34,389 nt of DNA from an uncultured Clostridium sp. (GTDB lineage: Bacteria > Bacillota > Clostridia > TANB77 > CAG-465). The notes under the pieces are model-generated. The model did not search any database and was not told the origin of the DNA. It was given only the letters and a program-made list of their open reading frames with translations. Both the position numbers and the translations under genes were made by a program. How positions within the stretch are numbered: position 1 is the stretch's first letter; every line of letters starts with the position of its first letter. The stretch lies in the NCBI GenBank assembly GCA_948470565.1, contig CAOKPF010000014.1, positions 1 to 34,389 of the forward strand, given 5' to 3'. Positions 18,282 through 23,546 of this stretch are shown one piece after another.

Positions 18282-19073
18282 CTATAAAACATCTGCAAAG
18301 TCTTTTTTACTCTTTTTAAATACGGAATTTCCCCATATATATATAACTGCTGTAATTATCCAAAAAACTAATGTATAAATTCCATGACCACTTGTAATAA
18401 TTTTTTCATCCAAAAATACTTCTCTAAAACCTGTAACCAAATATGTAAATGGCATACATTTTACAACTTTAGCAATTATTGGATAACTATCAAGCATTGA
18501 TATATTCCACATAACAGGAGTAAGCCAGAACAATAATTGCATTAATACATTAAGTAATTGCACAAAATCTGGAACTAATGCAGATAAAGCCGATGTAAAT
18601 CTAATAATTGAAATTATTAAACAAAATGCTGCAAATATAATATATATAAATTTTAATATATTAAGAAAATATCCAAATATTGCACATACTACTACTGCTA
18701 TAATTATTAAAAATAAAGATATTATACTAGATGAGGTAAATGAAATTACAGGTATTATATCAACGGGGAACACCACTTTTTTTACCAAATAACTGTAATT
18801 TCTAATTGATGAACTTCCATTTATTATACTATCATTTATGCTCATCCACATAGCCATACCTGGTAAATACCAAACGATAAATGGATAATCTCCTGCACTT
18901 CCAGCTTTTAAAATAAACTGAAATACTATAACATATGTAAGCATAAATACAAACGGTGATACAAATCCCCAAATAGCACCCAAACTAGTTCCTGCAAATC
19001 TATTTTTAAAATCATTTTTTCCTAATTGATATACTAATCTTTTATTGTTTATTAAAGACTTTATAAAATCCAT
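18282..19073 (-). CDS. wzm: ABC-2 type polysaccharide export permease
   Basis: The permease has 263 residues, the usual size of Wzm/TagG proteins. A short cytoplasmic amphipathic N-terminus (YQLGKNDFKNRFAGTSLG) is followed by about six membrane helices starting near residue 33, with the LTPVMWNISML and MPFTYLVTGFREVFL segments typical of ABC2_membrane exporters. It should pair with the Wzt ATPase two genes downstream to move the lipid-linked glycan across the membrane. It is the first gene of the 11-gene operon. A TTGAAA-N17-TATAAT promoter lies 26-54 bases upstream and a GAGGAGG site directly precedes the ATG. Confidence 0.93.
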   Translation of the reverse strand: MDFIKSLINNKRLVYQLGKNDFKNRFAGTSLGAIWGFVSPFVFMLTYVIVFQFILKAGSAGDYPFIVWYLPGMAMWMSINDSIINGSSSIRNYSYLVKKVVFPVDIIPVISFTSSSIISLFLIIIAVVVCAIFGYFLNILKFIYIIFAAFCLIISIIRFTSALSALVPDFVQLLNVLMQLLFWLTPVMWNISMLDSYPIIAKVVKCMPFTYLVTGFREVFLDEKIITSGHGIYTLVFWIITAVIYIWGNSVFKKSKKDFADVL

Positions 19074-19098: not shown

Positions 19099-19127
19099 AT
19101 TATATCATCATACTATTAATATTTCAA
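19099..19127 (-). promoter_or_regulatory. Sigma-A promoter of the polysaccharide operon
   Basis: On the minus strand TTGAAA (19122-19127) and TATAAT (19099-19104) are 17 bases apart, with a TG one base before the -10 box (extended -10). The expected start near 19092 gives a leader of about 20 bases before the wzm ATG. The right end of the promoter is about 48 bases from the MITE-like element. Confidence 0.85.
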
Positions 19128-19175
19128 TACTACATATAATTTTTTAACAAAATTTAGAAAATAATAAAAAAGTAA

Positions 19176-19414
19176 TTGTTACCATTCACGGGTATAGTAA
19201 GGTAAATGAAACACTGTTATATCAGCAAATATCTTATCTTGTAAAAAAAAGATTTTTACAAAATAACATTAATTTTATAGTATTTTAATCATAAAAGTAA
19301 ATTTTAGTATTAATTTTTATTATATATTTTTAATAAAATTATTACTTAAATTAAGGCAGTGCAAAAGTATTAATGACATAAAAAATATAATTTTATCCCC
19401 GTGAATGGTAACAA
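19176..19414. mobile_element. MITE-like element with 17-bp terminal inverted repeats
   Basis: TTGTTACCATTCACGGG at 19176-19192 is repeated exactly in inverted orientation at 19398-19414, and 20 of the first 21 end bases match. The element is 239 bp and has no open frame of useful length. Direct GTAA copies flank it (19172-19175 and 19415-19418), a possible 4-bp target duplication. No transposase is present, so it would need one in trans. It could also be an internally deleted insertion sequence. The ends are less AT-rich than the surroundings, so chance is unlikely. Confidence 0.75.
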
Positions 19415-19598
19415 GTAATTTATATTAAAATTAAAATATAAACTACTTTTATTTTATCTAATTATTTGCTATTCAATCTGCATTTGACAATAATTTCTTA
19501 TTTTTTTACTTTTTATATAAACATTTGCCATACTAATGAAGCAATCAAATTTGTTTAACAATGATGTAATTATTATAGGAAATAATTTAATAAAGTGT

Positions 19599-19628: not shown

Positions 19629-19883
19629 CTAATAATTCTTATATATATCTCCTCTATTATTTGCGTCTGTTACATTTATTATTATTTCATTATCTATCCA
19701 TTCAAATATAATACGATATTCCCCCACACGCAAACGATAAGTATTTTCTCTATCTCGCATTTTCTTTATATCACCAATATATGGAAGTTTATATATAGCC
19801 TTATATATTCTCTTTTGTTGCTTTTCATTTTGTTTATCAATAAATTTTTGTGCTTTCTTTTTTATATTAATTCTGTAATTCAT
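19629..19883 (-). CDS. RelE/ParE superfamily toxin
   Basis: This 84-residue protein has the complete RelE pattern: a basic N-terminal helix pair (KKKAQKFIDKQNEKQQKRI), KMRDRENTYRLRVGEYRIIFEW (strand pair with the conserved YRLRVGEYRIIF core, about 41-62) and a C-terminal NRGDIYKNY. RelE-type toxins cleave mRNA, often on the ribosome. I do not assign the exact activity. Its start codon overlaps the antitoxin by 17 bases, and a GGGGAT site inside the antitoxin gene serves it, so the two are translationally coupled. The length is normal and no residue looks damaged. Confidence 0.9.
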   Translation of the reverse strand: MNYRINIKKKAQKFIDKQNEKQQKRIYKAIYKLPYIGDIKKMRDRENTYRLRVGEYRIIFEWIDNEIIINVTDANNRGDIYKNY

Positions 19884-20151
19884 CTATTGAAATCCCCTTT
19901 TCTTTTAGTATCTGTTCAAAAGGAATTGCCTCCTCTTTTTCCTTTTTTCTTTCTTCATCAGTTAAAGAGAGTTCGTCTAATAACATTAATTTTTCTGTTA
20001 TATCCATATTTTCAAGTATAACATCAGGAGCTAATAATAATAATTTTATATCAATTAATTTTTCTGCTAACTCTTTAATAGTACTAATTTCATCTTTATT
20101 TAATACACACATAATATTATATATATCAATTACATTTTGTTTATCACTCAT
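19867..20151 (-). CDS. Antitoxin of the RelE-type pair
   Basis: The 94 residues begin at the ATG at 20151, which has GGAGG 8 bases upstream. An in-frame ATG 11 codons earlier lacks such a site, so I reject it. The C-terminus IPFEQILKEKGISIDEL (about 75-92) has the form of the toxin-binding tail of RelB/Phd-type antitoxins. The middle is helical and acidic (LTDEERKKEKEEA). The N-terminal half is not an obvious Phd or MetJ/Arc DNA-binding domain, so the repression partner is uncertain. The gene overlaps the toxin start by 17 bases and follows an interrupted small ORF under one consensus promoter. Confidence 0.8.
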   Translation of the reverse strand: MSDKQNVIDIYNIMCVLNKDEISTIKELAEKLIDIKLLLLAPDVILENMDITEKLMLLDELSLTDEERKKEKEEAIPFEQILKEKGISIDELQN

Positions 20152-20170
20152 TTTTAATACCTCCATATAT

Positions 20171-20338
20171 TTAACATTTTTCATTTAATTCTTCATTTAT
20201 TTTATAACCATTACTTTTTAGATATACCTTTCTTAATTATATATTTTCTAGCTTTTTAAAAAATTCATTATCCAATAAAACACTAATTTTTTTATCTTCA
20301 CGTCTTACTCTCATATAATCAGCCATGTTTACAGACAT
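20171..20338 (-). pseudogene. Small ORF with in-frame stop, head of the TA operon
   Basis: An ATG at 20338 with AAGGAG 5 bases upstream opens 33 codons (MSVNMADYMRVRREDK at the start, LLDNEFFKKLENI at the end) and meets TAA at 20237-20239. The same frame then continues for 21 more codons (ending KINEELNEKC) to a second TAA at 20171-20173. The 55-residue product would be basic and helical, a size suited to a DNA-binding regulator, but I do not recognise the family. It may be a truncated regulator, a functional 33-residue peptide or an upstream coupling ORF. Confidence 0.5.
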
Positions 20339-20558: not shown

Positions 20559-23546
20559 TTATTTATAACTTTTATACAAATAATTCATATCTACATTACC
20601 AGTTATACCATTTACCTTACCAGTAGATGTATATTGCCACATATTATATTTACCTTTATAATCAGTCTTTTCTGTATAATGTGCTAACCATATATCATAT
20701 GTGTTTAAATATGACATATCTAAATTATTTATATACCAATTCTTACTTGCATATATCATTGGTGTATATCCTGCATTTCTTATAGTATCACAAAAAGCTA
20801 CGCAAACTCTAGTTCTATCAATTGTAGATAAACTATTAGCTCTAGGAGGAGTTTCAAGATCATGTACATATTCAGTATCTATTATTATTGGATATTGTAC
20901 TGTATATCCTCTAACCTGATTTAAAACCCAATTTGCCTCTTCAACCGCTTCATCTACATTAATAGCTTGCGAAAAGAAATATACACCACAAGGAATTCCA
21001 AGCTCATTTACTTTAGTGATATTTTTTCTATAATATGTATCCTCAACTATTTTACCAGTACCATAACCTCTATATCCACATCTTATTATAGCAAATTCAA
21101 CACCTGCATCTTTTACATCATTCCAATTTATATTTTGTTGATAGCTTGATACATCTATTCCCCAATATCTATCTTTATAAACATTAATTAAGATTTTTTT
21201 CTCTGAAATTACATCTCCAAGAGAAGAAATAACTTGCACTTTTAAAACATGCATACCTTCTGATACATACTTAACATCTACCACACCTGAAAATCCAGGA
21301 GTTGGATTAGTGCCTATTCCACCATATCCAGGTATTGCATTTATAACATCTTGTCTTTTAATTCTATTTATAGTATTACCTACTCTTGAATCATCCATAT
21401 ATGTAATTATGCTAGTATCGGGAGTTTCAGACATTTCCCAACCAACTAATGTAATTTGATTTTTAGCTAGGTTATTATCAATTGGTTTTTCAATATGTAT
21501 AGTTCCATCATATTTATGTAAATTAATTTTTCTTGTATCAACTGCAAGCAATTCATTGGCAGAAGAAATTATCCAAACTGCAACTGTATGTTCACCATCT
21601 CTTAGATTACTTAAATCTACATTTGTTATAAATTGTGGATTAGGGTTTTGCTCAGCTGTTCCATATCCTGTTACTGACTCTATTAAACCTGCTCTTGGTG
21701 TTCTTTCTACACTTTTTCCTATATATTTACCATCTATATATACTTCTACTCTTGCATCTTTATCATCACTTAACACCCAACCATCTATTTGCATACTTGT
21801 TTTTACAGTCCTGTTAACTTTAGGATTATCAATATAAGTTCTTGCTACGTATTTTTGTAAATTAAAAGTTTTTGTATCAGTTGCAAGCAGTTTATTATTA
21901 GATGATACGATCCATACTGAAACTGTATGTTCTCCATCTCTTAAACCACTTAAATCTACATTTGTTACAAATTGTGGATTAGGATTTTGCTCAGCTGTTC
22001 CATATCCAGTTACTGACTCTATTAAACCAGCCCTTGGTTTTCTTTCTACACTCTTACCTATATATTTACCATCTACATATACTTCTACTCTTGCATTTTT
22101 ATCATCACTTAACATCCAACCATCTATTTGCATATTTAATCTTTGAGTACTATTAGGTTTAGGGTTATCAATATAGGTTCTTGCAACATACCCTTCTACA
22201 TTTACAGTTCTTGTATCACTTGCTAAAAGCTCATTATTTGACGATACAATCCAAACTGATATAGTATGCTTACCATTTCCCGGAATATTTACATCTACAA
22301 TGTATTTTGGAGTTGGATTTTGCTCGGCTGTTCCATATCCTGTTACTGACTCTATTAAACCTGCTCTTGGTGTTCTTTCTACACTCTTACCTATATATTT
22401 ACCATCTATATATACTTCTACTCTTGCATCTTTATCATTACTTAATACCCAGCCATCTATTTGAAAGTGTTCCTTAGAATTAGCATTTTGTTTTGGATTA
22501 TCTATATAGGTTCTTGCTACATATTTTTTTAAATTAAAAGTCTTTGTATCAGTTGCAAGTAATTTATTATCAGATGAAACTATCCATACTGAAACTGTAT
22601 GTTCTCCATCTTTTAAATCACTTAAATCTACATTTACAATATACTCAGGTGTTGGATTTTGCTCAGCTGTTCCATATCCTGTTACTGACTCTATTAGACC
22701 TGCTCTTGCTACTCTTTCTACATTTTTCCCTATATATTTACCATCTATATATACTTCTACTCTTGCATTTTCATCATCACTTAATACCCAGCCATCTATT
22801 TGCATTTGAACGTTTTGAGTACTATTTGGTTTAGGATTATCAATATAGGTTCTTGCTACATATTCTTTGACATTAACATCTCTTGTATCAGCAACAAGCA
22901 ATTTATTTTCAGAAGATATTATCCATACTGCTACTGTATGCCTCCCCTTTTCTAATGTACTTACTTCAACTCCATAACTTACAGTAATAGTCCCATCATC
23001 ATTTACATTTTTGCTTTTAACAATTGTATCTTGTGAATAAGGTATGTATTTTCCATCTATATATATCTCAATTCTTGAATTTTGATCATTTGAAACATAT
23101 TGCCCTGAAATATCAAATTTTGATATAACATCTTTTGCATCAGTTGGCATTTCCAAATTGTTTTTAGCAAAATATTCAATTTTCTCATTAACCGATACAT
23201 CAATTATATGACTTCCCTTTATTTCCTCTTTATCATAACTTGCTACATCAGTATAGCTAATAGTGATACTAGCTTTACCCTTTTTTACACCATTAGTTGT
23301 AACTGTTAATACATCATTATCTAACCAACAAGAATCTTCGGAAACTGTTACAATAGATGGATCTGATGATTCTATATCAATCTTGCCAACAGAATTTACC
23401 GCTTCAATTGTAAACGTTTTGGTATCTCCTTCATACATATTTAATTGTTCAGCAGATACATCAACACTACCATATGCAAATAATTTTGCTGGAAAAATAA
23501 TAGACATAAATAGTATAATTATTAAAGCATTTAAAATTTTTTTCAT
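20559..23546 (-). CDS. Secreted GH25 muramidase with tandem wall-associated repeats
   Basis: This 995-residue exported protein starts with a signal peptide (1-24, hydrophobic core then KLFA). A bacterial Ig-like domain (about 27-118) follows, then a degenerate repeat (about 144-228), four near-identical repeats of about 113 residues (229-679; IDGWVLSDD, ARVEVYIDGKYIGK and YGTAEQNP recur, the last at 291, 404, 517 and 628) and a degenerate repeat (680-790). A glycoside hydrolase family 25 domain (794-995) ends the chain. Catalytic landmarks are Asp798 (GIDVSS), Asp890/Glu892 (IIIDTEY) and WQYTSTG (970-976). GH25 enzymes cut the MurNAc-GlcNAc bond of peptidoglycan. The repeats look like beta-sandwich modules for wall or glycan binding. 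There is no LPXTG motif and no C-terminal anchor. It lies between the two polysaccharide operons with its own promoter. Role in wall turnover or in attachment of the glycan is inferred. Confidence 0.93.
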   Translation of the reverse strand: MKKILNALIIILFMSIIFPAKLFAYGSVDVSAEQLNMYEGDTKTFTIEAVNSVGKIDIESSDPSIVTVSEDSCWLDNDVLTVTTNGVKKGKASITISYTDVASYDKEEIKGSHIIDVSVNEKIEYFAKNNLEMPTDAKDVISKFDISGQYVSNDQNSRIEIYIDGKYIPYSQDTIVKSKNVNDDGTITVSYGVEVSTLEKGRHTVAVWIISSENKLLVADTRDVNVKEYVARTYIDNPKPNSTQNVQMQIDGWVLSDDENARVEVYIDGKYIGKNVERVARAGLIESVTGYGTAEQNPTPEYIVNVDLSDLKDGEHTVSVWIVSSDNKLLATDTKTFNLKKYVARTYIDNPKQNANSKEHFQIDGWVLSNDKDARVEVYIDGKYIGKSVERTPRAGLIESVTGYGTAEQNPTPKYIVDVNIPGNGKHTISVWIVSSNNELLASDTRTVNVEGYVARTYIDNPKPNSTQRLNMQIDGWMLSDDKNARVEVYVDGKYIGKSVERKPRAGLIESVTGYGTAEQNPNPQFVTNVDLSGLRDGEHTVSVWIVSSNNKLLATDTKTFNLQKYVARTYIDNPKVNRTVKTSMQIDGWVLSDDKDARVEVYIDGKYIGKSVERTPRAGLIESVTGYGTAEQNPNPQFITNVDLSNLRDGEHTVAVWIISSANELLAVDTRKINLHKYDGTIHIEKPIDNNLAKNQITLVGWEMSETPDTSIITYMDDSRVGNTINRIKRQDVINAIPGYGGIGTNPTPGFSGVVDVKYVSEGMHVLKVQVISSLGDVISEKKILINVYKDRYWGIDVSSYQQNINWNDVKDAGVEFAIIRCGYRGYGTGKIVEDTYYRKNITKVNELGIPCGVYFFSQAINVDEAVEEANWVLNQVRGYTVQYPIIIDTEYVHDLETPPRANSLSTIDRTRVCVAFCDTIRNAGYTPMIYASKNWYINNLDMSYLNTYDIWLAHYTEKTDYKGKYNMWQYTSTGKVNGITGNVDMNYLYKSYK
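21510..22862 (-). repeat. Four tandem ~339-bp repeats within the GH25 gene
   Basis: These encode residues 229-679. Unit boundaries are close to residues 229, 342, 453 and 566, giving periods of 113, 113 and 111 residues measured at the YGTAEQNP motif. Long stretches are identical at DNA level between units, for example the segment coding GYGTAEQNP. Such repeats can change number by recombination and are prone to assembly collapse. Confidence 0.9.

What the first reader, a model, noticed from the sequence alone, without database searches (positions are those of the whole stretch)
19172..19418. 239-bp MITE-like element beside the main operon promoter
Seventeen-base perfect terminal inverted repeats enclose non-coding DNA, with GTAA direct repeats outside. 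It sits about 50 bases upstream of the polysaccharide operon promoter, so it could alter transcription of the whole surface-glycan operon and mark strain differences.
Basis: seen in the sequence. Interest (0 to 1): 0.6.

Follow-up and report, generated by a model that had tools for sequence, protein, structure and literature searches.

The report
Miniature IS66-type transposon beside glycan operon
A 235-base piece of mobile DNA with no genes of its own, one of at least nine near-identical copies in this genome, has jumped in just upstream of a surface-glycan operon's promoter; it is an ordinary kind of parasite DNA, and its ends match those of single-gene IS66-family transposons.

Summary
The element is 235 bp (19178-19412), with 15-bp perfect terminal inverted repeats (GTTACCATTCACGGG; 19 bp with one mismatch), and is flanked by an 8-bp duplication AAGTAATT, not the 4-bp GTAA. 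Nine full copies lie in the genome (93-98% identical). Eight have perfect 8-bp duplications, each of a different sequence, so the family has transposed repeatedly. It is absent from 27 sister species, and its end sequence from 384 other genomes of the order.

The same ends (GTTACTATTCACGGG) bound 614-bp and 331-bp elements in a Selenomonadaceae genome that still carry pieces of an IS66-family transposase. Complete single-gene (ISBst12-type) IS66 elements have related ends (GTAACTATTCAGCCC) and 8-bp duplications. So this is a non-autonomous IS66/ISBst12-type MITE. The helper transposase was not found; contig ends sharing the terminal repeat suggest unassembled larger copies.

Next to the operon: the -35/-10 (TTGAAA-17-TATAAT) is conserved in seven sister species and intact here; the element ends 50 bp upstream of the -35 and shows no promoter or terminator above chance. 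A strong effect on the operon is unproven.

The parts
19178..19412 (.). 235-bp MITE, IS66 (ISBst12-type) ends, 20% G+C, no ORF of 80 aa or more
19178..19192 (+). left terminal inverted repeat GTTACCATTCACGGG (19 bp to 19196 with one mismatch)
19398..19412 (-). right terminal inverted repeat GTTACCATTCACGGG
19170..19177 (+). left copy of the 8-bp target duplication AAGTAATT
19413..19420 (+). right copy of the 8-bp target duplication AAGTAATT
19099..19127 (-). promoter TTGAAA-17-TATAAT (TG-extended) of the glycan-export operon, conserved in seven sister species
18282..19073 (-). first gene of the operon: ABC-2 type (Wzm-like) permease
19629..19883 (-). gene on the other side of the element: ParE/RelE-like toxin (weak match, below cut-off)

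Best explanation
A non-autonomous miniature transposon (MITE), 235 bp, mobilised in trans by a single-gene IS66-family (ISBst12-type) transposase that recognises the GTTACYATTCACGGG ends and makes 8-bp target duplications. It inserted into the gap between a toxin-like gene and the polysaccharide-export operon, 50 bp upstream of that operon's conserved promoter, which stays intact. Shown: the element, its copies, the 8-bp duplications, its absence from sister species, and the linkage of the same ends to IS66 transposase fragments in another genome. Inferred: that a complete helper IS exists (or existed) in this organism, and that the insertion has little or at most a modulating effect on the operon.
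For: Nine full copies (93-98% identical) and partial ones; eight perfect and one 7/8 eight-bp duplication, each of different sequence; 24 end matches genome-wide against 2 for the reversed control pattern. Same ends in Selenomonadaceae MAG RGIG9261 (96+96 end matches, control 0; 28 pairs, mostly 226-257 bp, 16 with at least 7/8 duplications). In relative G647 the same ends bound a 614-bp element encoding an IS66 transposase C-terminus (PF03050 29.6 bits, over its cut-off of 23.1; NF033517 E=1.7e-18) and a 331-bp element joining a putative N-terminal piece to the same C-terminal tail. Complete single-ORF IS66 elements of Geobacillus and Anoxybacillus plasmids have ends GTAACTATTCAGCC and perfect 8-bp duplications. 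ISDge4, assigned to the ISBst12 group, has ends GTGACTACTCAGCA/GTAACTGCTCAGCA and an 8-bp duplication (PMC12898284).
Against: No transposase gene with these ends was found in this genome (PF03050 none), nor a complete one anywhere searched. The helper is inferred from contig ends C25 and C31, which share an end whose short reading frame stops inside a hairpin, as in the G647 IS and roughly as in the Geobacillus/Anoxybacillus IS66 elements. Ends differ from Geobacillus ISBst12-type ends in 5 of 15 positions. Two copies (C39, C46) might lie in reading frames; this was not resolved.
Confidence: 0.88

Rival explanations
1. The element has been co-opted as a regulatory module of the glycan operon: its insertion changes operon transcription, for example by supplying a promoter or by separating the promoter from upstream sequence.
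For: It lies 50 bp upstream of the -35. IS elements inserted upstream of a silent gene switched it on in Geobacillus, apparently by promoters within the element (PMC8024623).
Against: Promoter-like hits in the region equal the shuffled expectation (19 against 19.0) and no terminator-like site lies in the element. The core promoter is intact and conserved in seven sister species that lack the element. The element is one of nine copies at unrelated sites.
Confidence: 0.12
2. A MITE of a transposon family other than IS66 that also makes 8-bp duplications.
For: The helper transposase of this genome is not assembled; canonical three-gene IS66 elements in the class end in GTAAGCG, not GTTAC.
Against: Identical 15-bp ends bound elements with IS66 transposase fragments in G647, and single-ORF IS66 elements have closely related ends and 8-bp duplications.
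Confidence: 0.08
3. Not a transposon but a repeated regulatory or structural hairpin spread by recombination (REP-like).
For: AT-rich, folds better than shuffles as single strand (z -4.5), and apart from the terminal repeats has no recognisable content.
Against: Perfect 8-bp duplications of different sequence at eight of nine sites are the signature of transposition.
Confidence: 0.02

Closest known systems
ISBst12 group of the IS66 family (pHTA426 element, labelled ISGka4-like by PGAP; ISDge4 of Deinococcus geothermalis)
   Same: Ends of the form GTNACTAYTCA... (GTAACTATTCAGCCC in Geobacillus; ours GTTACYATTCACGGG), 8-bp target duplication, stop codon within or beside a hairpin near one end.
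   Different: Those are about 1.6 kb with one transposase gene (pHTA426 element); this element is 235 bp without any gene, and its end differs from position 12 on.
GTTACTATTCACGGG elements of Selenomonadaceae MAG RGIG9261 (L096-L138)
   Same: Same 15-bp ends, one exactly shared 25-bp end stretch, similar size (mostly 226-257 bp), 8-bp duplications.
   Different: Interior unrelated and G+C-rich; about 100 copies rather than nine.
614-bp and 331-bp elements of Selenomonadaceae genome G647 (L199, L200)
   Same: Same ends; non-autonomous deletion derivatives.
   Different: Still carry transposase fragments, so their origin from an IS66 element is visible.

Membership tests
MITE (miniature inverted-repeat transposable element) | Short (under about 600 bp), terminal inverted repeats, no transposase gene | tested here: met
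   235 bp, 15-bp perfect repeats, no ORF of 80 aa or more
MITE (miniature inverted-repeat transposable element) | Several copies with constant-length target duplications at unrelated sites | tested here: met
   nine full copies, eight perfect 8-bp duplications
MITE (miniature inverted-repeat transposable element) | A related autonomous element in the same genome | tested here: inconclusive
   PF03050 not found in the 126-contig assembly; contig ends C25, C31 and C9, C56, C86, C109 share the end sequence with other interiors; smallest contig is 2505 bp, so short repeated contigs appear to be missing
IS66 family, ISBst12 group | 8-bp target duplication | tested here: met
   reference elements
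IS66 family, ISBst12 group | Ends resembling those of the group (GTAACTATTCAG...) | tested here: met
   GTTACYATTCACGGG against GTAACTATTCAGCCC: 10 of the first 11 positions agree, the rest differs
IS66 family, ISBst12 group | IS66 transposase associated with these very ends | tested here: met
   G647 elements, PF03050 over cut-off, but in another genome and only as fragments
IS66 family, ISBst12 group | Single transposase gene without TnpA/TnpB | not testable with these tools
   no complete copy with these ends was found

The most novel reading that the evidence does not exclude
A recently horizontally spread IS66/ISBst12-type transposon lineage mobilises unrelated miniature elements in distantly related bacteria (this genome and a rumen Selenomonadaceae with about 100 copies), capturing new interiors while only the terminal 15-25 bp stay the same; in this species one insertion modulates surface-glycan expression.
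Probability: 0.15. Interest if true: 0.45.

Novelty: new member of a known kind. Interest (0 to 1): 0.25.

Why it matters
It gives a clean set of insertions for tracing strain differences in this lineage, and adds a MITE family with defined ends to the ISBst12 group of IS66, for which no MITE was found in the held open-access papers. It is not a new mechanism.

Tried and rejected
GTAA as target duplication: rejected, since nine copies show 8 bp. Canonical three-gene IS66 as the parent: its ends in the class are GTAAGCG..., less like ours than the single-gene group. Parent IS in the own assembly: PF03050 negative; the end sequences of contigs C9 and C25 lead only to further contig ends. Copies in viral contigs: none. 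End sequence in 5.4 million papers: no relevant hit. Pairing C-type and B-type contig ends through reverse-complementary flanking 8-mers: compared by eye, no match. Window RNA families: none. A first alignment of copies mixed orientations and was redone. Weak database hits in sister species are short AT-rich matches without the ends and were discounted. A viral scan with the toxin-like neighbour as query found nothing.

Full report
Check of the observation. The inverted repeats are real: GTTACCATTCACGGG at 19178-19192 and its reverse complement at 19398-19412, 15 bases perfect and 19 with one mismatch. A first-order Markov simulation of the window gives 0.15 such 15-bp repeat windows on average; 4 are seen, 3 of them from this one repeat.

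Copies. The own genome (2.1 Mb, 126 contigs) holds nine full copies, 225-236 bp, pairwise 93-98% identical, and partial copies at C70, C54 and C109. Extracting the eight bases on both sides gives eight perfect duplications and one with 7/8, all of different sequence (AAGTAATT, GCTTTCTA, CTTTTAAC, GAAAATTA/GGAAATTA, ACTTATTT, ACTCAAAT, GCTACAAA, CAAGTTTT, CATAAAAC). A chance 8/8 match has a probability of about 6e-5 per copy at roughly this base composition. Genome-wide the end sequence occurs 24 times with up to two mismatches, against 2 for the reversed control pattern. This shows transposition.

Distribution. Among 56 relatives, 27 of the same genus, no genome has more than short AT-rich matches, and the 23-base end pattern with up to two mismatches is absent from 384 other genomes of the order. 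An exact scan of 84,980 genomes with the 22-base end hit a single genome, the Selenomonadaceae MAG RGIG9261 from water-deer rumen (43 stretches; 96+96 matches with up to three mismatches and none for the control). Its elements are mostly 226-257 bp with 8-bp duplications in many cases but a G+C-rich, unrelated interior. An end stretch of 25 bases is identical between the two genomes. A shared transposase lineage is the simplest explanation; horizontal spread is an inference.

Family. A relaxed search of that family gave genome G647, where the same ends bound a 614-bp element with an open frame of 174 codons that matches the IS66 transposase domain (PF03050, 29.6 bits against a cut-off of 23.1; NF033517, E=1.7e-18, below its whole-protein cut-off as expected for a fragment). 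The 614-bp element reaches the end of its contig, so its duplication could not be read. A 331-bp element with the same ends (L200, minus strand) carries a frame that, by eye, looks like the N-terminal coiled coil of such a transposase, and ends in the same tail LTQILTKDADR: an internal deletion derivative, which is how MITEs are thought to arise. Plasmid copies of complete single-gene IS66 elements in Geobacillus kaustophilus and Anoxybacillus amylolyticus have ends GTAACTATTCAGCCC and GTAACTATTCAGCCG with perfect 8-bp duplications; pHTA426 is reported to hold one ISBst12-group IS66 element (PMC8024623), and ISDge4 of the ISBst12 group has GTGACTACTCAGCA/GTAACTGCTCAGCA with an 8-bp duplication (PMC12898284). 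Three-gene IS66 elements in the class end instead in GTAAGCG.

Helper. No PF03050 match exists in the assembly. Six contigs end within 55-124 bases inside an element with the same end but another interior: C25 and C31 (one type), C9, C56, C86 and C109 (another). The C25/C31 type has a short frame ending VFDLSYVNAEN-stop (read by eye) with the stop inside a strong hairpin, as in G647 and, with the stop at the hairpin base, in the Geobacillus and Anoxybacillus elements. This is what collapsed, unassembled larger copies would look like; contigs below 2.5 kb are not in the assembly. That they are the helper is inferred.

Position. The promoter of the operon, TTGAAA-17-TATAAT with a TG extension, lies at 19127-19099 on the minus strand. 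Orthologous permease genes of seven sister species (62-70% identical) have the same kind of promoter at the same place and no MITE; the sequence further upstream differs. The element therefore inserted 50 bp upstream of an intact promoter. Within the region, promoter-like hits equal the shuffled expectation, and no terminator-like site lies in the element. A modulating effect cannot be excluded but has no positive evidence.

Verdict. A real, ordinary MITE; the new points are its 8-bp duplication, its assignment to the single-gene IS66 (ISBst12-type) group through shared ends, and the sharing of its ends with a distant rumen bacterium.

Noticed in passing
L096-L138 (Selenomonadaceae MAG RGIG9261): About 100 copies of a mostly 226-257 bp MITE with G+C-rich interior; some are tandem or composite (L120:2882-3343; L127:2384-2855, 472 bp; L113:6257-6656, 400 bp).
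   Followed up: partly
window 19629-20184: A ParE/RelE-like toxin gene (weak PF05016 match, below cut-off) overlapped by a small upstream gene, a likely toxin-antitoxin pair between the element and the next gene.
   Followed up: partly
window 20559-23546: 995-aa protein with at least four similar Ig-like repeats and a C-terminal glycosyl hydrolase family 25 domain.
   Followed up: no
L227 (NC_006509.1): PGAP labels this IS66 transposase ISGka4, whereas PMC8024623 uses ISGka4 for an ISLre2-family element: a naming conflict.
   Followed up: no
C9, C56, C86, C109 contig ends (L022, L038, L039, L040): A second end type sharing the terminal repeat but with a different AT-rich interior, cut off by the contig ends; either the other end of the helper IS or a second MITE family.
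   Followed up: partly
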